Assembly (NCBI RefSeq): GCF_030503895.2
Contig: NZ_CP129970.2
Span: forward strand, 2,403,001-2,467,000
Reading direction: 5' to 3'
Length of the DNA: 64,000 nucleotides
DNA from: Marivirga arenosa
GTDB lineage: Bacteria > Bacteroidota > Bacteroidia > Cytophagales > Cyclobacteriaceae
Shown piece after piece: positions 181 through 16,563 of this stretch (position 1 is the stretch's first letter; each line of letters opens with the position of its first letter). A program made the translations under genes and the position numbers. The notes under the pieces are model-generated. The model saw nothing but the letters and a program-made list of their open reading frames with translations, ran no database searches and was not told the origin of the DNA.

Positions 181-720
181 ATAAGTTGCGTACCTGAAGG
201 AAAGTATCTTATCGAAAAGAGGATTACCCATGAGCGAGGCTTTCATTTGATTTTGAGGGATGTTCCTGAGCGGAGCTGGATTTTAATCCATCCTGCGAAT
301 GATGCACTGAAGGAATTGCAGGGATGTATAGCCCCTGTGATGAAGCTTAGCGATATAGGTAAAGGTATTCATTCACAAAAAGCAATGGATAAACTTTTAG
401 AAGCCTTTGAGGAGGTTCAAAAAGAAAATGAATTGGTATATCTCACCATTAAAAAACAATCAAATATGAATATCATAAAACAAGCTCAGCAGCCAACTCC
501 AAAATTCTTTAAGAAGCTAAGAACTGCAGGACTGATATTGGCTGCCATCGGAGGTGCTATATTGAGTGCACCGATAAGTTTATCCGCTGGAGTGATTACA
601 GCTGCAGGTTACTTGACAGTGGGCGCTAGTGTGTTAAGTGCTGTAAGCCAGGTAGCGGTAGAGCAAGAAGAAAATCCTCCACAGGAGGAAATGAATCACA
701 ATTCTCATGCAAGTCCATGA
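181..720 (+). pseudogene. 5'-truncated DUF5675 gene with C-terminal membrane segments
   Basis: The frame is open from about 175 and reads SCVPEGKYLIEKRITHERGF onward, matching residues about 41-60 of the complete DUF5675 protein at 6337-6999. The first 40 codons are missing because the gene starts at the junction with the terminator repeat (stop codon at 172). A TTG at 247 could start a 157-aa product, but homology shows that this is internal. The DUF5675 motif around SWILIHPANDA is kept. The C-terminal part (PTPKFFKKLR, then two hydrophobic stretches) is intact and overlaps the next gene by 14 bases, as in the complete copy. DUF5675 function is unknown. This copy is probably non-functional, unless the C-terminal part is translated separately from the ATG at 466. 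Confidence 0.8.
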
Positions 721-895
721 TAAGGTAGGAGTAGCAGGAGGGACTTTGCTGACGGTGCTAGTGAATCTGCAGAGTTCAGATATTATTAAAACCTGTATAC
801 TAGCAGCAGTAGGAGCATTAGTCAGTTTTTGTGTGTCGCTAGCTATGAAGTGGGTAGATAAAAAACTAAATAAAAAAGGGAACTTTAAAAGTTAA
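707..895 (+). CDS. Small single-span membrane protein of the DUF5675 cassette
   Basis: A 62-aa protein with one hydrophobic segment (about residues 27-48, IKTCILAAVGALVSFCVSLA) followed by a strongly basic tail (KKLNKKGNFK). It is a close relative of the 61-aa protein at 6983-7168 and has the same 14-base overlap with the upstream DUF5675 gene, which suggests translational coupling. Size, single span and basic tail recall phage holins or small toxins, but that is only an analogy. A bidirectional terminator follows. Confidence 0.7.
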   Translation: MQVHDKVGVAGGTLLTVLVNLQSSDIIKTCILAAVGALVSFCVSLAMKWVDKKLNKKGNFKS

Positions 896-2974: not shown

Positions 2975-3136
2975 ATTTTTTAATTTTTCAACATTTAAGA
3001 TATATAAAATTAATTATTTTAAAGAATCTATTCAAGAAAGGTTGCTAATATATAGTGTACATTTCCCTTATTATTACATCTAACCTTTTAAATAATATCA
3101 ATTAAAACCCAGTAGGTAAACCCACCGGGCAATAAA

Positions 3137-3301
3137 CTAAAAAGGCAATTGCGAGAAATTGACTTCAAACCACAAAAACTGAGAGAAATAATAACTATCA
3201 GATTGAAAATATAAGCGAGTGAAGCGAAAAGCTGGACGCAGGCGAACGTACGCCACCAGCCACTTGCTGGCGATACGTGCTTTAAAAATTAATCTAAACA
3301 T
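3137..3301 (-). CDS. Conserved 54-aa small protein (copy 1)
   Basis: A 54-codon ORF starting MFRLIF and ending FSQLPF. It aligns end to end, without gaps, with the ORF at 7252-7416 (37 of 54 residues identical by my count). Many differences are synonymous third-position changes or conservative swaps, and the start and stop positions agree, which argues for a real protein. The core WLVAYVRLRPAF is invariant. It is rich in aromatic and basic residues with no clear signal or membrane segment. Function is unknown. Similarity to the second copy ends at the start codon, so its upstream region is not the native one. Confidence 0.55.
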   Translation of the reverse strand: MFRLIFKARIASKWLVAYVRLRPAFRFTRLYFQSDSYYFSQFLWFEVNFSQLPF

Positions 3302-4190
3302 TGACCATTCATTTGGAGGAGATGTTAATTATATGATAGTTTGGGAAAGACAATGGTGGGACATCCGAGACGGGAATTTAACGCAAGCATACTATAATGG
3401 ACCACAGATGAGTAGTCCTTGGAATCTAAATATCGGAGGGGGTAAGTCATTAAGATTCGCAACAATTCATAGGGCATGCCATCGTTACACGTTTGAAGAT
3501 GTAAATAACTTAAGCAGACCAATTTTGGGGAATGGAGGTAAAATAAAAATTAATTATAATGATGGAGAAGGCACTGGTGTAAACTGGGGACAAGAATGGC
3601 AAAATGTTGACTTCAGAACAGGATTGCTACCAAATATAAAGATTTGGGGTAAAAGTGAAAATACTGGTCAATATTTCATGACAAACCAATTGTATTCTAC
3701 TACAATTCATGAATTAGCTCATACCACACATATAAATACTATGAACTTTGGTCTTATTGGATATGGTCAAGTTAGTCCAATCTTGTATGAAAGCTGGGCT
3801 ACTGCTGTGGAATGGTATTTGACCAGAAAGGAGTACTTGGACAGGGGAGTTAATAATTATGATAGCCCTAATCTAATTGTTCCAGACGTGGGATTACAGG
3901 TAGATAACGAACAATGGTGGAGATTTAATGGCAGAGGAGAGACCAATGATATTTACACCCCTCTTTTTATTGATTTGATTGACAACTATAACCAAGCTGC
4001 TGAAAGAAATAGTAATAATATGCCTACAGATATTATTACTGGTTTCTCTGTGCGTAATATTGAAAGAAATGTAATACGAAATTCTTACGGTTTAACAAGC
4101 TTGAGAAATGAGCTGAAGAGGAATGAACCAAGTGGTATTACGGATGCTCAAATTGATAATTATATAGCATTTTACTTTAACAATTTGTAA
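3302..4190 (+). pseudogene. N-terminally truncated zinc metallopeptidase
   Basis: The frame encodes a zincin-like segment with TTIHELAHTTHI (HExxH plus a third His) around 3708-3743 and a downstream ESWATAVEW (about 3788-3815) that may supply the last ligand region. The open frame runs back to a GTG at 3219. However, the codons from 3219 to 3301 are the antisense of the 54-aa ORF repeated elsewhere, so they are not native. The real N-terminus and signal peptide, expected for such a Bacteroidota peptidase, are missing. The gene therefore looks beheaded by a rearrangement at about 3301. The next gene, a lipoprotein, follows after 2 bases, so the two were probably one operon. Expression as a chimera from 3219 cannot be excluded. 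Confidence 0.6.
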
Positions 4191-4192
4191 GA

Positions 4193-4633
4193 ATGAGAAA
4201 ATATTTTTTTCTACTATCAGTATGTTTTTTAAATGCATGCGGAACTGGTGAACCAATAAGTGGCGTAACTAAACATATTTTCCAGAATAAAACCAATTAT
4301 GAAGTTTTGGTGATAGGTTATAACGATGGTAGTGAAGCAGCCAGTTTCAATCTTCAATCTGAAGAAGAATACATTTGGGATATCCCTGCTAGAGATGGTG
4401 CAGATAATGGTCCTTTCAGCACGTCATTATTTAGACCTCATGACTCAGTATTAGTGTTTTATGCAGATACACTTGTAATTCATTTCGATATTGGAAGATT
4501 AGAAGGTAATCCAATGCGCATAGAAAACTACGATCTTGTAGAAGGCGAAAGAGAGCCTTTTATTTATGAATTCATTTTTGATGAAGAAGATTATAATCTT
4601 GCACTGGAAAGAGGTAGAATCATGAAGCCTTAA
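4193..4633 (+). CDS. Small lipoprotein of unknown function
   Basis: A 146-aa protein whose signal peptide ends in a lipobox with Cys16 (LNACGTGEP). The mature part is acidic, with beta-rich patterning (NYEVLVIGYNDG, SVLVFYADTLVIHFD). I do not recognise a family. It starts 2 bases after the truncated metallopeptidase, so it was probably co-transcribed with it. It may no longer have a promoter. Confidence 0.65.
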   Translation: MRKYFFLLSVCFLNACGTGEPISGVTKHIFQNKTNYEVLVIGYNDGSEAASFNLQSEEEYIWDIPARDGADNGPFSTSLFRPHDSVLVFYADTLVIHFDIGRLEGNPMRIENYDLVEGEREPFIYEFIFDEEDYNLALERGRIMKP

Positions 4634-5187: not shown

Positions 5188-5385
5188 TTAATCGGTGAGG
5201 TATTCCTGGACTGTTTCAGCATCTATTCCAGTGTAATCAGCGAACTCTGAAACGGTGATCATTTGGTGTTTTTCTTTTCCTCTTCTTTCCCTGATCTTCT
5301 CTAATAATCTTCTTCCTGTGCGTTCGCTTTTTCCTGTAATGCGCTGTATGTCCTTTGGATAGATAACGGTTCTTTTCAATATCAT
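5188..5385 (-). CDS. Small helix-turn-helix-like protein
   Basis: A 65-aa basic protein (MILKRTVIYPKDIQRITGKS...). The segment KDIQRITGKSERTGRRLLEK resembles a DNA-binding helix pair, and a second helical unit (VSEFADYTGIDAETVQEYL) also looks HTH-like. I recall similar small proteins in Bacteroidota, but no named family. It diverges from the DUF6266 gene and might regulate it or the element end, which is inference. Confidence 0.6.
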   Translation of the reverse strand: MILKRTVIYPKDIQRITGKSERTGRRLLEKIRERRGKEKHQMITVSEFADYTGIDAETVQEYLTD

Positions 5386-5566
5386 AAGCTTATACTTTAT
5401 CTATACTTTATCAATAAGGATGCTATACACTAATATAGCCAATTTCTTGAAAGCTATAACGACAATAATTACCAATTAAGACAACACGACCTTTAGCGGA
5501 AGTCAGTTTTTGACAAATGCACTTTAGGAGAATAGTTTGCCTGCTCATCAAATAAAATTTTTAAGT

Positions 5567-6328
5567 ATGGCAAGACAAAAAGGTATTATCAAACTGAAAG
5601 GCAAAATCGGAGATTTGTCTTTCTACAAAACGAAAGATGGCTACTTGGCTAGAGAAAAAGGAGGTATTGACAAAGAGCGTATGAAGAACGATCCCGCTTT
5701 CCAACGGACTCGAGAAAATAGTTCTGAGTTTGGAAGAGCCGGGAAAGCTGGTAGGCTTTTGAGAACTTCTGTTCGTCCATTGCTTTTGAAGGCTGCTGAT
5801 GGCCGAGTGGCCAGTCGAATGACGCGAGAAATGGTGAAGGTCGTGAAAAGTGATTCCGACAATGAAAGAGGCGAAAGAACGGCTGCTAACGGTGATATTG
5901 AATTGCTTAAGGGCTTTGAATTTAATCAAAGCGGAAAGCTTAATGCGACTATGTATGCGCCCTTTGTAGCCAATATCGACAGGGCAACGGGCGAAGCCAC
6001 GGTCAATATACCAGAATTTATTCCGCAGAATACTTTTGCAGCTCCTGCAGGCGCATCGCATATGCGTTTGGTGTCTGCTGCAAGCAAAGTGGATTTCTTA
6101 GAGGAAACATTCAGCTTGGGTACTAATGAAAGTAGCGAGATAGCGATTGGTCCACAGACCGAAACAGCTATCACCTTGACTGCAACTGTTCCGACAGCTG
6201 GTGATCAACCCATCTTTTTGCTTTTTGGAGTGGAATTCCTGCAGGAGGTGAATGGGACTATGTATCCGCTTAAGAATGGAGCCTTTAATGCATTGGCACT
6301 TGTTGAGATTGATAATAGTGCTAAATAG
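5567..6328 (+). CDS. DUF6266 family protein
   Basis: The N-terminus MARQKGIIKLKGKIGDLSFY and the segment FQRTRENSSEFGRAGKAGRL are the signature of DUF6266, a Bacteroidota family of unknown function. An in-frame TTG at 5537 would add ten residues, but the ATG at 5567 fits the family start. The protein has 253 aa, no signal peptide and no membrane span. The middle and C-terminal parts are beta-rich (ATVNIPEFIPQNTF; ETAITLTATVPTAGDQPIFL). The N-terminal Arg/Lys/Gly-rich region looks like a structural or nucleic-acid-contacting part. It is 8 bases upstream of DUF5675, so it is the first gene of the cassette. Structural phage-like or contractile-system roles have no direct support here. Confidence 0.85.
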   Translation: MARQKGIIKLKGKIGDLSFYKTKDGYLAREKGGIDKERMKNDPAFQRTRENSSEFGRAGKAGRLLRTSVRPLLLKAADGRVASRMTREMVKVVKSDSDNERGERTAANGDIELLKGFEFNQSGKLNATMYAPFVANIDRATGEATVNIPEFIPQNTFAAPAGASHMRLVSAASKVDFLEETFSLGTNESSEIAIGPQTETAITLTATVPTAGDQPIFLLFGVEFLQEVNGTMYPLKNGAFNALALVEIDNSAK

Positions 6329-6336
6329 ACTTCACA

Positions 6337-6999
6337 ATGGAGTTTCTATTAAAGCGAATATATCATCCTAGCGGAACTAATGGAGCTCTTTGGTATGATG
6401 GATCACTGATCTGCCATACCATTGAACTCCCCTGGAAGGAAAATCAGCCTTTTGTCAGTTGTATTCCTGAAGGGAGATACCTTTTGGAGAAAAGGATTAC
6501 TCATGAAAGGGGATTTCATCTGATATTGAAGAGCGTTCCGGGAAGGAGTTGGATTTTAATCCATCCTGCGAATGATGCCCGGACAGAATTGGAAGGCTGC
6601 ATTGCACCAGTATTGGAGTTGACAGGAATAGGAAAAGGAATCCGATCGTGTGAAGCCATGGACAGGCTTTTGGAAGTCTTTGAAGAGGCTCAAGAGAACC
6701 AGAATCATATTTACATCACTATCAAAGATAAATCAACTATGAATATTTTAGAACGAGTGAAAAAGCCCACCCCAAAGTTGTTTAGAAAGTTACGAACAGT
6801 CGGTTTGGTATTGGCTGCTGCAGGAGGTGCTATTTTAGGAGCGCCAATTGCACTGCCAGCTGGCTTGATTACGGTTGCAGGATATCTGACCGTTGGCGCC
6901 AGTGTCCTGACTGCAGTGAGTCAGGTGACGGTGGATGATGAGGTCAAAATACCTCCACTGCCTGAGGTAAAAAACAAGGGAGATGCAAGTCCACGGTAA
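6337..6999 (+). CDS. DUF5675 protein fused to a two-span membrane domain
   Basis: A 220-aa protein. Residues 1-130 are DUF5675 (LLKRIYHPSGTNGALWYDG, CHTIELPWKEN, SCIPEGRYLL, WILIHPANDA, GCIAPV), a family found in phage-like loci and of unknown activity. Residues about 137-205 begin at an internal Met (MNILERVKKPTPKLFRKLR) and contain two hydrophobic stretches (GLVLAAAGGAILGAP; LITVAGYLTVGASVL). In other Bacteroidota I recall this second part as a separate small protein, so this may be a fusion or have an internal start. The last 17 bases overlap the next small membrane protein. The set resembles an endolysin plus holins arrangement in layout only. Confidence 0.85.
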   Translation: MEFLLKRIYHPSGTNGALWYDGSLICHTIELPWKENQPFVSCIPEGRYLLEKRITHERGFHLILKSVPGRSWILIHPANDARTELEGCIAPVLELTGIGKGIRSCEAMDRLLEVFEEAQENQNHIYITIKDKSTMNILERVKKPTPKLFRKLRTVGLVLAAAGGAILGAPIALPAGLITVAGYLTVGASVLTAVSQVTVDDEVKIPPLPEVKNKGDASPR

Positions 7000-7168
7000 G
7001 GCGGGCACAGCTGGCGGAACACTGCTCACCGTGCTGGTCAATTTGCAAACAGCGGATATCGTCAAGACTTGCATTTTGGCAGCTGTGGGAGCATTAGTTA
7101 GTTTTTGTATGTCATTGGCCATGAAATGGGTGGTCAAGAAAATCAGGAAGAAAGACCGTAGTTCATAG
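6983..7168 (+). CDS. Small single-span membrane protein (copy 2)
   Basis: A 61-aa protein with a Gly/Thr-rich N-terminus, one membrane span (about residues 27-48, VKTCILAAVGALVSFCMSLA) and a basic tail (KWVVKKIRKKDR). It overlaps the DUF5675 gene by 17 bases and is homologous to 707-895. A terminator hairpin overlaps its stop codon, so it ends the cassette operon. Holin-like function is possible but unproven. Confidence 0.75.
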   Translation: MQVHGKAGTAGGTLLTVLVNLQTADIVKTCILAAVGALVSFCMSLAMKWVVKKIRKKDRSS

Positions 7169-7182: not shown

Positions 7183-7251
7183 ATGTCCAGTCCACAGAGA
7201 AATGATCAAAAAAATAAAAACCTGGCAGGCGAAACCCACCAGGCAATAAAA

Positions 7252-7416
7252 CTAAAACGGCAATGGCGAGAAATTAATCTCAAACCTCAAAAACCGAAGG
7301 AAATAATAACCTTCAGACTGAACACGAAACCGCGTTAAACTAAACGCTGGACGAAGACGAACGTACGCCACCAACCACCGGCTGTCGATGCGCACTCTAA
7401 AAATTAATTTAAACAT
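7252..7416 (-). CDS. Conserved 54-aa small protein (copy 2)
   Basis: An ORF starting MFKLIFRVRIDSRWLVAYVR and ending FSPLPF, equal in length to the ORF at 3137-3301, with conserved start and stop and many synonymous differences. The frame is open further upstream (to about 7650), and an ATG at 7425 would add three residues, but the homology begins at the 7416 start. It faces the cassette operon and ends 84 bp from it. No family name or function is known to me. Confidence 0.6.
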   Translation of the reverse strand: MFKLIFRVRIDSRWLVAYVRLRPAFSLTRFRVQSEGYYFLRFLRFEINFSPLPF

Positions 7417-7772
7417 AGTGCGCATCCACACAGGACCGGTGAGATAGATGCAAGAGCGGCACAACAAAAAATACGAGCATGAAGGGCTTGGAAGTCGAGA
7501 AGGATGCTGGAGATTTTTTTTGTAGCCGGCAACGCGAACTCTTGTCATCTTTCTCATCCGCATGCCTGTACCTTTCACTATGTTTGGATTGATTTTTTCA
7601 CTGTCCTTAAGCAGGAAAGCTAGCCTGTAGCCTTTTGGGAAAGTAAGCAATCTGGCAGAAAATCAGCTATGAAAATCCTCCTCTTCCTAACCTGAACCTC
7701 CACATATAATATTTTTAAAAGAGAAAAGAAAAAACGGAAAAAAAGAAAAGAGAAAGCCTTTTTTTCCGGGCT
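7417..7772. other. Non-coding stretch, purine-rich on the plus strand
   Basis: No convincing gene is seen. The long minus-strand frame here is simply an upstream extension of the 54-aa ORF, with low-complexity translation. From about 7715 to 7768 the plus strand is almost pure A/G (AAGAAAAAACGG, AAAAAAGAAAAGAG). It could hold the promoter of the 54-aa gene and of the downstream RNA-like region. Confidence 0.4.
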
Positions 7773-7837
7773 GACTCGCCTAGGGGGCAAGTCTTTTTTG
7801 AAAAATACTTCCGCTGGTGAGCGGAGGAGATTTTTTA
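7773..7837 (+). terminator. Two tandem terminator-like hairpins
   Basis: The first hairpin (7773-7793, GACT-C-GCC / GGC-A-AGTC) is followed by six T. The second (7808-7827, an 8-bp stem with a GGTG loop: CTTCCGCT / AGCGGAGG) is followed by AGATTTTTT. They are either tandem plus-strand terminators or the first structured elements of the adjoining RNA-like region. Confidence 0.5.
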
Positions 7838-7859
7838 AAAAACCCAACGGGCTTGGGCT

Positions 7860-9040
7860 TGCGGCCTAAAAGCGAAAGCAGACCGATATTGCTTTCCTCT
7901 TTTATTTATTTTTTACTGATTATGAAACCCCATAAAGTCTAGAAAGAACTTGTAAATCAAATTCCTGGGGCTAATTCCACGCGGCTATAGCCGCACCTTA
8001 AACGGGTGGTGGGGAATTTGGGAATGGATGTGGAATGCTGTCCTATAGTAATAGCACTACAGTTTGATCAAGGCACCCATGCGGGCAGAAGTGGGAAGGT
8101 GAACGCAGGAAGAGCGGTTGCAAATAATGGAGTTTACGGAATGGTTTGCAATCCGCTGTGTGTCGAGCCGTCTGCGAGTGCGACCCCGGGTGGTAGACCG
8201 AGAGTGACCGTAGGGAACGGGGGCTAGCCACGAGCGGAGAGTAACGGAGCGAACAAGGCTTGGCGTGGTTTTTTGTTGAGAAGGAAAAAGCAAGTTTAAT
8301 ACAGCCATTGAAGAAAGGGATGTGTAAAGCGTGGCTGAATTATACTTGCTGTGGGAGTGACAAAGCGCCTTTATTTGAAGGGGCTTTGGTCACGATGGGC
8401 TACAAAAACCATGACAAGCCGCAGCCCGGGGGTGCCCGCAGGCGAGCCTAACTTTGGCAACCGGGGGATGTTGCTTTTAACAGTAGCGTAGCGGAGGTTT
8501 AAAGGAACAGACCAGGTAGGTTGCCGTGATTCACTTGGGCTAAGCTGCGAGGGGCATGACAGCACTTGCCCCGAAGGGGTTGGCTTTTGGCTTTAAAGAC
8601 CTTATAAATCAACACTTATTTAAAGCCTGGAGCCAATGCTGGCGAGACCCTTTGCCGCAGCCCAAGGGCAGCACACCATAGTGCCTGGCAGTGCGGCTGG
8701 TATATTAAACAACAACTTTTTGGCTTGGGAGCCAAAAAGACCGCTGCCTTTTGCTTTTTATCTCTTTATCTGCTTAACAGAAAAAAAGCAAAAGCTATGA
8801 GGGAAGGTTTGTGCGGGTAAGTGCGGTTGGTTAGCCGAGGGCCTTTGATTTACCCTTTAGGGAAATTAAAGGCTTTCGGCTGTGGGAGCCATGGGCTTTG
8901 GCTAATTTTTTTGGATTGTGTAAGGGATGTAGGGAAATTAGGCAAGGCGCATGGTCTTTGCCTAATAATTCATTTAGAGAAAGCTTTAAATGGGAATAAG
9001 GAAAAACGAACGTATTATGTTTATTGATGCGTTCGTTTTT
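7860..9040 (+). ncRNA. Putative large structured non-coding RNA
   Basis: More than 1.1 kb that is more GC-rich than its neighbours, has no plausible protein and is crowded with stems. Examples are GCGGCTATAGCCGC at 7981-7994 inside 7974-7980/8030-8036; TGCAAA/TTTGCA plus AGCGG/CCGCT at 8113-8157; GTGAC-AAAGC / GCTTT-GTCAC at 8357-8393; GCCGCA/TGCGGC at 8654-8697; a perfect 10-bp stem at 8716-8739; a long hairpin at 8833-8881; and TTAGGCAA/TTGCCTAA at 8938-8965. It ends in a strong T-tailed hairpin at 9002-9040, so the plus strand is the likely transcript. Short ORFs inside have no start/codon logic. Exact ends are unknown. It does not match an RNA family I can name (not tmRNA, RNase P or rRNA). 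It could also be a structured origin or transfer region. Confidence 0.5.
9002..9040. terminator. Strong bidirectional terminator hairpin
   Basis: An 11-bp perfect stem (AAAAACGAACG / CGTTCGTTTTT) with a 17-base loop and T-runs on both strands. It lies between the plus-strand RNA-like region and the end of the minus-strand mercury operon, and can serve both. Confidence 0.8.
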
Positions 9041-9050
9041 TGGAGCTTTA

Positions 9051-12872: not shown

Positions 12873-14117
12873 TTATTTTGGTAAATGAAATAACTGAACT
12901 GCCAGCTTTATTTCACGGTTTTTATCACCATTGATATGAAATCGATAATTGAACCAATTTTCATCTGTTTTAGTAATGTAGCCTAAGTAATTATCATGGT
13001 CTTTTGTTGATGCTTCAACCTTTTGCAGAATGGTGGAAAAATCTATTTGCTTAACAAAAATAACCACGGATGCTTTAGTATCTCTCCACGTTAAATAATT
13101 TAATAATTGTGAAATCGTTTTCAAATAGCCTTTTTCACCTTTCCAGAACTTGCACTCAGCAATAAATATAACTGAACTATCAAATCTCAATTGGATATCA
13201 GTCTTACCAGATTTGTTGAATGTTTCTCCAGACGCACTTCCTAGCTCGAAATTAGGGTCTAAGGTCATTAAAATATGGTCTCTTAAATCTTCTTCATTTT
13301 TGTTTTCGTAGACACTTGGCATTCTTTCAAAATTTTTACCAACATCATTAATCAATTTGAGAATTTGAAAATAATTTTTATCGTCTAAAGCTGGTTCTGG
13401 TGTAAACCCTTTTTCAGTTATGGAAGGTTTAATTGATATCTTTTCTTTTAGTTTAGGTTGTGGAACTGAAAAAGTTTCTGAAATATTATTTTTCTTCTTG
13501 AGTGGGACACCTAATGAAGCCATTAAATTATTCTTGCTTAGTAGCTTTTGCTTTTTATTACTGACGAACGATTTTATTTTAGCATATAGAGAATTATTAA
13601 ATTCTAAAATATCCGTTCTAAGCGTTTCATAATTCCTTTTAACACCATTGACTTCTCTATCATAGTCCTGTTTTATTTTTATAGGGTCATTATGAAAATT
13701 TATAAATTCAGCTATTACGGTATTTCCCTTCACATGAAAATTGCCACCTCCACCTATTGAAAATGAGGATGCAGGGCATTTTAAGAGTAAATCAGCATTG
13801 CCTTCGACTGGAATTATAAACTGAATGACTTCTTTTTTATATTTTTCTCCTGGACGAACATGGAAAGACATATGAAAATATTCTGCAGGGATATCATCTT
13901 CATACATATCAGCGTAAACATCATCAAATAAAATTGTAGGGACATCCAATGCATATTCATCTTTTATATGGTTAATATATTCGATTTCGTTAGCATTTAG
14001 GATATAATCTTCAGGTTCACTTTCCACAGTTTTATTTATACTTTCAATAGTAGATAAAAACTTATCTGAAATACGACCTGAGCTAAATATTTTTGAATGA
14101 CTATTAAAACTGTACAT
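12873..14117 (-). CDS. PD-(D/E)XK nuclease-like protein
   Basis: A 414-aa soluble protein. The C-terminal domain (about residues 285-400) has a restriction-endonuclease-like core: GKTDIQLRFDSSVIFIAECKFW gives the D...ExK catalytic pattern, followed by a helix with SQLLNYLTWRD. The N-terminal 240 residues are unlike anything I can name and may provide target recognition. Such stand-alone nucleases are common in defence islands. It lies in the defence-like block of element B. There is no methyltransferase beside it, so it is probably not a classical restriction-modification pair. Confidence 0.65.
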   Translation of the reverse strand: MYSFNSHSKIFSSGRISDKFLSTIESINKTVESEPEDYILNANEIEYINHIKDEYALDVPTILFDDVYADMYEDDIPAEYFHMSFHVRPGEKYKKEVIQFIIPVEGNADLLLKCPASSFSIGGGGNFHVKGNTVIAEFINFHNDPIKIKQDYDREVNGVKRNYETLRTDILEFNNSLYAKIKSFVSNKKQKLLSKNNLMASLGVPLKKKNNISETFSVPQPKLKEKISIKPSITEKGFTPEPALDDKNYFQILKLINDVGKNFERMPSVYENKNEEDLRDHILMTLDPNFELGSASGETFNKSGKTDIQLRFDSSVIFIAECKFWKGEKGYLKTISQLLNYLTWRDTKASVVIFVKQIDFSTILQKVEASTKDHDNYLGYITKTDENWFNYRFHINGDKNREIKLAVQLFHLPK

Positions 14118-15525: not shown

Positions 15526-16563
15526 CTATTTATTCCGTTTTTTGGTGATGCGTTTTACCTCTTTATCGAAGTCAGATTCGAAATTTTTATCTTGGTCTAC
15601 TCTGAATTTCTGGTATTCTTTTTCTGCTAGTTGTTTGGCTATCTGTGCTGAGATTTTACCGGCATCCTTTAAAACTTTGTAATCATTAAATTGTAAAAAG
15701 CCATCCAGTTTGCTTATCCAATCGCTCATTTTCATAGGGTTTTGTCTTTCTGCCTGAAGCTCAGCAAAATCTAAATACATGGTGACGATACGGTTGAGGT
15801 CTTTGAGTTCTTTTTCTTCTAAGTAATTCTTGGCTACTACTATATCGGTTTTAAGTACTTTTCCTTTTGGTGCGCTTTTCCAGGTGGTTAAGCCCATATG
15901 CGGTTTTTTAGCATCCGCTCTTTCTTTAATAATTTCAGCTGCGGTATGACCCGTAATAGCCCAATGGAGTTTGTTTTGCACTGTTTTGAAGAATGTCTGC
16001 GAGATTTCTGCTTTAGGATCGTAATCAATGCTACATTGAGCATAGATATCGGTGATTTTTTGGTAGAATCTTCTTTCACTTGCTCGAATCTCCCGAATCC
16101 GTTCTAGCAGCTCATCGAAGTAATCTTTACCAAATTGGGCAGAACCTTGTTTTAAACGTTCGTCATCCATAGCAAAGCCTTTGATAATGAATTCACGTAA
16201 AACTTTGGTTGCCCAAATACGGAATTGTGTACCACGCTGTGACTTTACTCGGTAACCCACAGAAATGATGACATCCAAGTTATAATACCTTACGGTGTTT
16301 TCTTGTGTTTTCCCTTTGATAGCGCCATGCGGACTGGTAGTTCGGAAATCCCGAACAACCACTTTCTCATCCAGTTCACCTTCTTCAAATACATTACTAA
16401 TATGCTCCGATATCGTGGATTTGGCTTTTTCGAAAAGCTCTTGCATACCTTTTTGGGTAAGCCAAACAGTTTCATCTTGTAATAGGACATCTACCTTTAC
16501 TTCCCCCGCCTGGGAAACGTAGAGCAGGAATTCGCTTTGGTTGGGGTTAAGGTTGTTGCTCAT
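15526..16563 (-). CDS. RhuM family protein
   Basis: A 345-aa protein with the RhuM signature: EVKVDVLLQDETVWLTQKGM near the N-terminus, the block DVIISVGYRVKSQRGTQFR, and IWATKVLREFIIKGFAMDDE. RhuM proteins were named from a Salmonella pathogenicity island and are frequent passengers of type I restriction loci; their biochemical role is unknown. Here the start codon lies 3 bases after the stop codon of an hsdS remnant, which agrees with that context. The C-terminal third (QAERQNPMKMSDWISKLDGF) is typical of the family. Confidence 0.88.
   Translation of the reverse strand: MSNNLNPNQSEFLLYVSQAGEVKVDVLLQDETVWLTQKGMQELFEKAKSTISEHISNVFEEGELDEKVVVRDFRTTSPHGAIKGKTQENTVRYYNLDVIISVGYRVKSQRGTQFRIWATKVLREFIIKGFAMDDERLKQGSAQFGKDYFDELLERIREIRASERRFYQKITDIYAQCSIDYDPKAEISQTFFKTVQNKLHWAITGHTAAEIIKERADAKKPHMGLTTWKSAPKGKVLKTDIVVAKNYLEEKELKDLNRIVTMYLDFAELQAERQNPMKMSDWISKLDGFLQFNDYKVLKDAGKISAQIAKQLAEKEYQKFRVDQDKNFESDFDKEVKRITKKRNK

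What the first reader, a model, noticed from the sequence alone, without database searches (positions are those of the whole stretch)
7773..9040. Hairpin-dense region of about 1.2 kb in an integrative element: candidate large structured RNA
The region is more GC-rich than its surroundings, has no plausible protein, and contains at least eight strong stems (listed in the feature), ending in a T-tailed hairpin at 9002-9040. Large ornate RNAs such as GOLLD, ROOL and OLE are known from mobile elements and phages, but this sequence matches none that I recognise. It lies beside an uncharacterised DUF6266/DUF5675 cassette. The stems are seen in the sequence; that they form an RNA is inference.
Basis: partly seen in the sequence, partly recalled or inferred. 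Interest (0 to 1): 0.8.

Follow-up and report, generated by a model that had tools for sequence, protein, structure and literature searches.

The report
Folded single-strand promoter of mobile DNA
A hairpin-packed stretch of mobile DNA in a marine bacterium begins with a fold that probably lets genes be read while the DNA is still single-stranded, followed by about a kilobase of other conserved folded sequence whose job is unknown.

Summary
The hairpin-dense, protein-free block is real, but the conserved unit is 7708-8955; the T-tailed hairpin at 9002-9040 lies outside it. It is multicopy in Marivirga, has relatives across Bacteroidota, shows strong compensatory pairing and matches no Rfam family.

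The 5' domain (7734-7914) resembles an Frpo-type single-stranded-DNA promoter more than an RNA. In relatives the 3' arm carries Bacteroidota promoter boxes (exact TAnnTTTG in 51 of 84 sites; 1063 of 16800 random windows). In ICE relatives a covarying stem spans the promoter. Outside Marivirga, 67 of 69 near left-hand genes start beside the hairpin and point away; the stretch lacks a box for them (1 of 72). They include ssb, ardA, pcfK and radC. Relaxase genes lie on the predicted side in 13 of 14 cases.

Against: the window copy has a mismatched -7 box and no adjacent leftward gene; only 5 of 10 further hairpins obey the gene rule; no relaxase in this genome. The right-hand kilobase folds on the + strand and may be RNA or single-stranded DNA. 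Transcription was not testable.

The parts
5188..5385 (-). 65-aa HTH-like protein, left end of the repeated module
   Evidence: Conserved in 12 of the loci (cluster C4); only weak HTH matches in Pfam
5537..6328 (+).
   Evidence: No Pfam family at E 0.1 and none at 0.01 for its relative in L048; conserved in the loci
6337..6999 (+). DUF5675 protein
   Evidence: PF18925, E 1e-27
6983..7168 (+). 61-aa holin-like protein
   Evidence: phrog_443 holin, weak, E 0.006
7213..7600 (+). Domain A: second hairpin domain related to domain B (ends approximate)
   Evidence: Similar DNA in other copies; model R2 finds the counterpart in L041, L042, L044, L045, L046, L054 and L055, but neither R1 nor R2 finds it in the window at E 0.1
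7734..7914 (+). Domain B: candidate single-stranded promoter hairpin (ends by eye)
   Evidence: R1 7745-7911, E 2.1e-23 (the window is in R1's alignment); R2, built without any Marivirga sequence, 7781-7868, E 2.5e-10
7805..7830 (+). Conserved internal loop ATAC / GGAGAT closing the apical stem
   Evidence: Sequence; columns 66-70 and 138-146 of A3
7859..7861 (+). TTG at the -33 position, 23 bases before the -7 box
   Evidence: Sequence
7885..7892 (+). -7-like box GATATTGC, one mismatch to TAnnTTGY; 10 of the 13 Marivirga copies that reach this point match TAnnTTGY
7915..8955 (+). Right-hand structured region, function unknown
8257..8420 (+). Stem 8257-8273/8404-8420 enclosing a part that is replaced by a shorter, different hairpin in 9 of 14 aligned copies
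9002..9040 (.). T-tailed hairpin in the flank, not part of the unit

Best explanation
The region is a block of sequence that works as a folded single + strand of a mobile element. Its first domain (7734-7914) belongs to a family of hairpins spread through Bacteroidota mobile DNA that act like the Frpo promoters of plasmid F. When the + strand is single-stranded, for example just after entering a cell, its two arms pair into a double-stranded promoter: TTG and the TAnnTTTG or TAnnTTGY box lie on the 3' arm and the start site is at the base. RNA polymerase then uses the strand 5' of the hairpin as template and reads leftward into minus-strand genes, which in conjugative relatives include early-protection genes (ssb, ardA, pcfK, radC). 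In the window copy the gene slot directly to the left is empty, so this copy may be idle or may act on the distant 65-aa HTH gene. 7915-8955 is a further conserved folded + strand of unknown role. Shown: conservation, pairing, strand, boxes in relatives, neighbours. Inferred: that the folding molecule is DNA, that polymerase uses it, and when.
For: Covariation: 142 doubly changed cells against 35.8 in shuffles, 0 of 500, and 75 against 27.7 in ICE types. Exact TAnnTTTG in 51 of 84 sites, 41 of them with TTG 17-25 bases upstream; random windows 1063 of 16800; boxes match the flavobacterial sigma-A consensus (PMC9723704). In ICE types helix 1 spans the promoter with 5 doubly changed pairs and the -7 box itself is paired, so a transcript begun there cannot be the folding molecule. 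67 of 69 near left genes on the minus strand; minus-strand box in 1 of 72 (background 1124 of 7200) and plus-strand box in 49 of 72. Left neighbours SSB, ArdA, PcfK, RadC, DUF932, DUF6943. Relaxase on the predicted side in 13 of 14. GNA triloops in 58 of 75, a DNA mini-hairpin motif (PMC4686876). R2, built without Marivirga, finds the window domain.
Against: Window -7 box has a mismatch and its triloop is AAC; no leftward gene within 600 bases in 8 of 12 Marivirga sites, the others being 3 minus and 1 plus. 4 of the 51 exact boxes are Marivirga matches about 23 bases past the domain's box, leaving 47 of 72 outside Marivirga. The outer stem P1 is absent from the A3 consensus, so its covariation is shown only for ICE types. 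In Marivirga alone domain B shows no strand preference in energy (-92.5 against -91.8) and 10 doubly changed pairs against a shuffle mean of 7.9. 5 of 10 newly examined hairpins have a plus-strand left gene. Relaxase misses: G323:C25; and in G055 the nearest relaxase, 50 kb off, is on the other side. No relaxase in the window's genome. oriT not mapped; no expression data.
Confidence: 0.55

Rival explanations
1. 7734-8955 (or 7213-8955) is a large structured non-coding RNA, transcribed rightward from a promoter further upstream; the TAnnTTTG match is an RNA motif or a coincidence.
For: Covarying stems on the + strand, G-U far above A-C (421:55 and 401:11), wholesale swap of a peripheral hairpin, non-coding, no second promoter box in the right part, + strand folds better than - in the right part.
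Against: Box, spacing, neighbour orientation and relaxase polarity would be coincidences; GNA triloops are not an RNA hallmark (recalled); no terminator found as part of the conserved unit.
Confidence: 0.27
2. The fold acts as single-stranded DNA but for starting the complementary strand or for transfer (single-strand origin or oriT), not for expressing genes.
For: Strand-specific fold; the title of the Frpo paper names primer synthesis too (reference seen); the right-hand region has no gene and no conserved promoter box.
Against: Left genes oriented from the hairpin in 67 of 69; relaxase 14-34 kb away where present.
Confidence: 0.12
3. The hairpins are recombination or cruciform sites in double-stranded DNA, which would explain the multicopy array and changing cargo.
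For: Multicopy with variable cargo slots; integrase-like genes near several hairpins.
Against: G-U against A-C asymmetry means that one strand folds; no shared crossover point found (ends read).
Confidence: 0.06

Closest known systems
Frpo / ssi single-stranded promoters (plasmids F, ColIb-P9)
   Same: A folded single strand rebuilds promoter boxes; ssb and ardA are among the genes served (PMC9849209 and PMC11541004, passages)
   Different: Other phylum and other promoter consensus (TAnnTTTG); found in integrated elements; activity not shown; sequence not compared with known Frpo
Large ornate RNAs GOLLD, ROOL, OLE
   Same: Long, non-coding, many stems, mobile-element context (context of those RNAs recalled)
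   Different: No Rfam match; RNA not shown here. PMC12286853 seen only in a search listing
Single-strand origins of rolling-circle plasmids
   Same: Folded single strand used by RNA polymerase (recalled)
   Different: Recalled only; not compared

Membership tests
Frpo-type single-stranded promoter | Single strand folds into a long hairpin | tested here: met
   Covariation and DNA-parameter folds
Frpo-type single-stranded promoter | Fold rebuilds the host's promoter boxes in the right order on the 3' arm | tested here: met
   Met for the family; the window copy has one mismatch in the -7 box
Frpo-type single-stranded promoter | Served genes lie on the hairpin's 5' side, on the opposite strand | tested here: inconclusive
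   67 of 69 but 5 of 10 in a later set; not met in the window copy
Frpo-type single-stranded promoter | In the leading region next to oriT, on the transferred strand | tested here: inconclusive
   Relaxase polarity fits 13 of 14; oriT not mapped; no relaxase in the window's genome
Frpo-type single-stranded promoter | Sequence similarity to known Frpo/ssi | not tested
   No known Frpo sequence was fetched or compared
Frpo-type single-stranded promoter | Transcription from single-stranded template | not testable with these tools
   Needs an experiment
Rfam families, among them GOLLD, ROOL, OLE | Covariance-model match at gathering score | tested here: not met
   No match over the unit or the homologous domains
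Large structured ncRNA in general | Conserved covarying structure, non-coding | tested here: met
Large structured ncRNA in general | Made as RNA | not testable with these tools
   No expression data here
Integron attC site | R and L core boxes, IntI-type integrase | not tested
   Considered only because of the hairpins

The most novel reading that the evidence does not exclude
A two-way promoter: as single-stranded DNA the arms pair and the promoter reads left into early-protection genes; once the strand is double the same boxes read right and make a structured RNA of about 1 kb from 7915-8955. One sequence would be both an entry switch and the promoter of a giant RNA, in several families of a phylum.
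Probability: 0.22. Interest if true: 0.9.

Novelty: new variant of a known kind. Interest (0 to 1): 0.74.

Why it matters
Single-stranded promoters are described for proteobacterial plasmids. My searches of the held open-access library (main-text finds of 'Bacteroid' in PMC11541004 and PMC12826799, 0 each) showed none for Bacteroidota; most subscription papers are not held. If right, it suggests how integrative elements of Bacteroidota protect themselves on entry, gives search models (R1, R2) for leading regions and for new anti-defence candidates such as DUF6943, and leaves a kilobase of conserved folded sequence to explain.

Tried and rejected
Protein-coding origin: rejected. The long minus-strand ORFs over the region in L048-L050 (cluster C19) were judged spurious antisense frames by eye. 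Known RNA family: none. Phage origin: no match of 7700-9045 in the phage records; no confirmed relative of the 263-aa protein in viral contigs among 156 pattern matches. A promoter array in the right-hand region: no second TAnnTTTG column in more than 1 of 18 Flavobacterium sequences; TAnnTTGY at 8517 is in 13 of 14 Marivirga copies, but I saw no TTG at proper distance by eye. PADLOC on three cargo proteins: no match. Group II intron and IS110 bridge RNA were thought of and set aside without a test (an IS110-like gene, named by recall, lies beside L002).

Limits of the counts. The 84 sites are non-redundant by core sequence only, come partly from loci found through the 263-aa protein, and many are Flavobacterium, so they are not independent. 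101 sites were listed; 10 R1 hits without an anchor and 7 duplicates were dropped. L198's anchor was misplaced by the script (seen), which hides one exact box. 4 of the 51 exact boxes are Marivirga matches past the domain's own box. R1 and R2 genome searches scored at most six candidates per genome. The 35-kb limit for relaxases was set after seeing the list; the second hairpin of G443:C19 was not counted again. Of 21 R1 hairpins in the 12 genomes, nine had no relaxase on their contig; of the R2-only ones, G323:C27 (two), G439:C101, G099 and G353 had none near. The figure 23 of 26 in my notes was a reading by eye and is not used. My confidence was set at 0.55 in this check because the outer-stem covariation holds only for ICE types and four boxes were misplaced.

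Full report
Setting. The window is G000:C1:2403001-2467000 of a 3.94-Mb single-contig genome. The genus is Marivirga, inferred from matching named records.

Observation. Composition, stems and fold scores bear out a structured block, although 7900-8100 and 8300-8400 are not unusual by single-sequence energy. A second copy lies in the same genome at 84% identity. Of 98 related genomes 18 gave some match, with several copies each in G003-G006; some of the 18 are short matches, several in A-rich sequence. One copy is on plasmid NZ_CP129969. Paralogues share about 7708-8955; similarity runs on beyond 8955 only in L035, L038 and L039. Inside the stem 8257-8273/8404-8420, 9 of 14 aligned copies carry a different, shorter hairpin.

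Wider family. The neighbouring 263-aa protein as bait gave 80 loci (the best 80 of 497) from named Bacteroidota genomes. Many carry the same 5' domain downstream. An alignment of 29 (A3) gave 34 consensus pairs, 24 with a change on both sides. 96.4% of cells are paired; 142 cells are doubly changed against 35.8 in shuffles (0 of 500), and slid controls gave 11 to 43. The outer stem P1, which I read by eye, is not in this consensus. Model R1 matched 29 of 395 sampled Bacteroidota genomes.

An unexpected context. Of 41 R1 hits in fetched regions, 14 had a protein of the module upstream on the same strand. Many others lay in other mobile DNA, some between an integrase-like gene and genes for SSB, DUF932 and (recalled) PRTRC proteins. 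Pfam names for left neighbours: ArdA, PcfK, RadC, SSB, DUF932, DUF6943 and a true DUF6266. A separate alignment of 13 hairpins of this kind (A5) has 75 doubly changed cells against 27.7 (0 of 500), though for pairs (19 against 14.7, 3 of 500) and pair types (46 against 39.3, 9 of 500) the excess is smaller. Model R2 made from it matched 23 of 395 genomes, two of them (G099, G353) not found by R1. It finds the window domain at 7781-7868, E 2.5e-10, although no Marivirga sequence went into it.

Promoter in the fold. In Flavobacterium psychrophilum the sigma-A -7 box is TAnnTTTG and one variant is TAnnTTGY (PMC9723704, passages). In 84 non-redundant sites an exact TAnnTTTG lies 25-115 bases after the loop in 51 (29 more within one mismatch, 4 none), against 1063 of 16800 random windows; 41 of the 51 have TTG 17-25 bases upstream, most often 21. 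Four of the 51 are Marivirga matches about 23 bases beyond the domain's box, leaving 47 of 72 outside Marivirga. In 18 Flavobacterium right-hand regions the box is at the domain-B position in 15 and at no other column in more than one. In Marivirga the position holds TAnnTTGY in 10 of the 13 copies that reach it; the window has GATATTGC. DNA-parameter folds put TTG in a stem and the -7 box near the base, unpaired or partly paired in several Flavobacterium sequences and mostly paired in ICE types. In ICE types helix 1 joins sequence upstream of TTG to sequence downstream of the -7 box, with 5 of 12 pairs doubly changed; helix 2, which pairs the box itself, hardly varies. A transcript starting at this promoter lacks the upstream arm, so the folding molecule is single-stranded DNA or an RNA begun elsewhere.

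Direction. If the + strand folds, the template leaves the hairpin on its 5' side and the RNA reads left. Outside the Marivirga paralogues, 69 of 72 sites have an ORF of at least 110 aa within 600 bases to the left, and 67 of the 69 are on the minus strand; right-hand neighbours within 1500 bases are 47 minus, 18 plus. The left stretch lacks a box for those genes: minus-strand TAnnTTTG in 1 of 72, against 1124 of 7200 background windows, while the right side has the plus-strand box in 49 of 72. Against this, of 10 newly examined hairpins only 5 follow the rule; L203, L204, L205 (two) and one of L202 have a plus-strand gene on the left.

Relaxase. Leading-region order predicts the relaxase gene on the left, pointing left. 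I had worked this out before but had not written it in the notebook. 13 of 14 hairpins with a PF03432 gene on the same contig within 35 kb agree; G323:C25 does not. In G055 the nearest one, 50 kb off, is on the other side.

DNA or RNA. After the main stem a mini-hairpin has triloop GAA (30), GTA (13), GGA (8) or GCA (7) in 58 of 75 called cases; the other 17 include AAA (8) and AAC (3). GNA loops on G-C stems make extraordinarily stable DNA mini-hairpins (PMC4686876, passages). The window has AAC there, and GCGAAAGC at 7872-7879.

Right-hand region. In 15 Flavobacterium sequences RNAalifold gives 275 pairs, 97 doubly changed (mean of 100 shuffles 44, maximum 54), G-U 421 against A-C 55, plus-strand energy -411.6 against -345.1. 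In 13 Marivirga copies there are 309 pairs, 11 doubly changed (mean 4.1, maximum 8), G-U 401 against A-C 11, -547.8 against -474.7. Domain B in Marivirga alone is weaker: 10 doubly changed pairs against 7.9 (maximum 11), 37 cells against 15.4 (maximum 22), and no strand preference (-92.5 against -91.8) (all). The right-hand region folds on the + strand; whether as RNA or DNA, and to what end, is not known.

What remains doubtful. The window copy has no near leftward gene. Of 17 genomes searched that carry module-type or related hairpins, 4 have a PF03432 relaxase, and the window's genome has none, so the source of single strands there is unknown. In some Marivirga copies the slot between domains A and B holds a minus-strand gene (L039, L041, L042, L044), in L036 a plus-strand one.

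Literature. Frpo folds to rebuild -10 and -35 boxes and drives leading genes, ssb among them (PMC9849209 and PMC11541004, passages). 'DUF6266' occurs in no held paper. I found no description of such promoters in Bacteroidota in the searches named above.

Noticed in passing
window 12873-14117 and 15526-16563: Two candidate defence proteins of PADLOC: PDC-S54 (E 7.9e-143) and PDC-S05 (E 5.1e-156).
   Followed up: no
window 3100-4633: A partial copy of domain A (3100-3301, 80%) overlaps the start of an ORF with a HELAH motif (3219-4190), followed by a small lipoprotein-like gene (4193-4633); it looks like a toxin-immunity cassette (inference).
   Followed up: partly
window 247-895: A second, truncated DUF5675 gene (E 2.7e-10) and holin-like gene: remnant of another module copy.
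   Followed up: no
L202:13910-13986: Flavo-1 RNA (RF01705) lies about 190 bases upstream of a domain-B-type hairpin.
   Followed up: no
L167, L202, L205: Two domain-B-type hairpins 1-7 kb apart on one strand in the same element, reminiscent of the two Frpo copies of plasmid F (PMC9849209).
   Followed up: partly
L101:9708-10163 and relatives: DUF6943 is the usual leftward gene beside the hairpin in Flavobacterium-type loci; a candidate early-protection protein (inference).
   Followed up: partly
L048:7144-7761: In Marivirga aurantiaca a 205-aa minus-strand gene separates domain B from the right-hand region, suggesting that these are two units.
   Followed up: no
L165, L182, L191, L197: A protein cluster whose L165 member is a true Pfam DUF6266 lies on the minus strand near the hairpin; the window's 263-aa protein does not match that family.
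   Followed up: no
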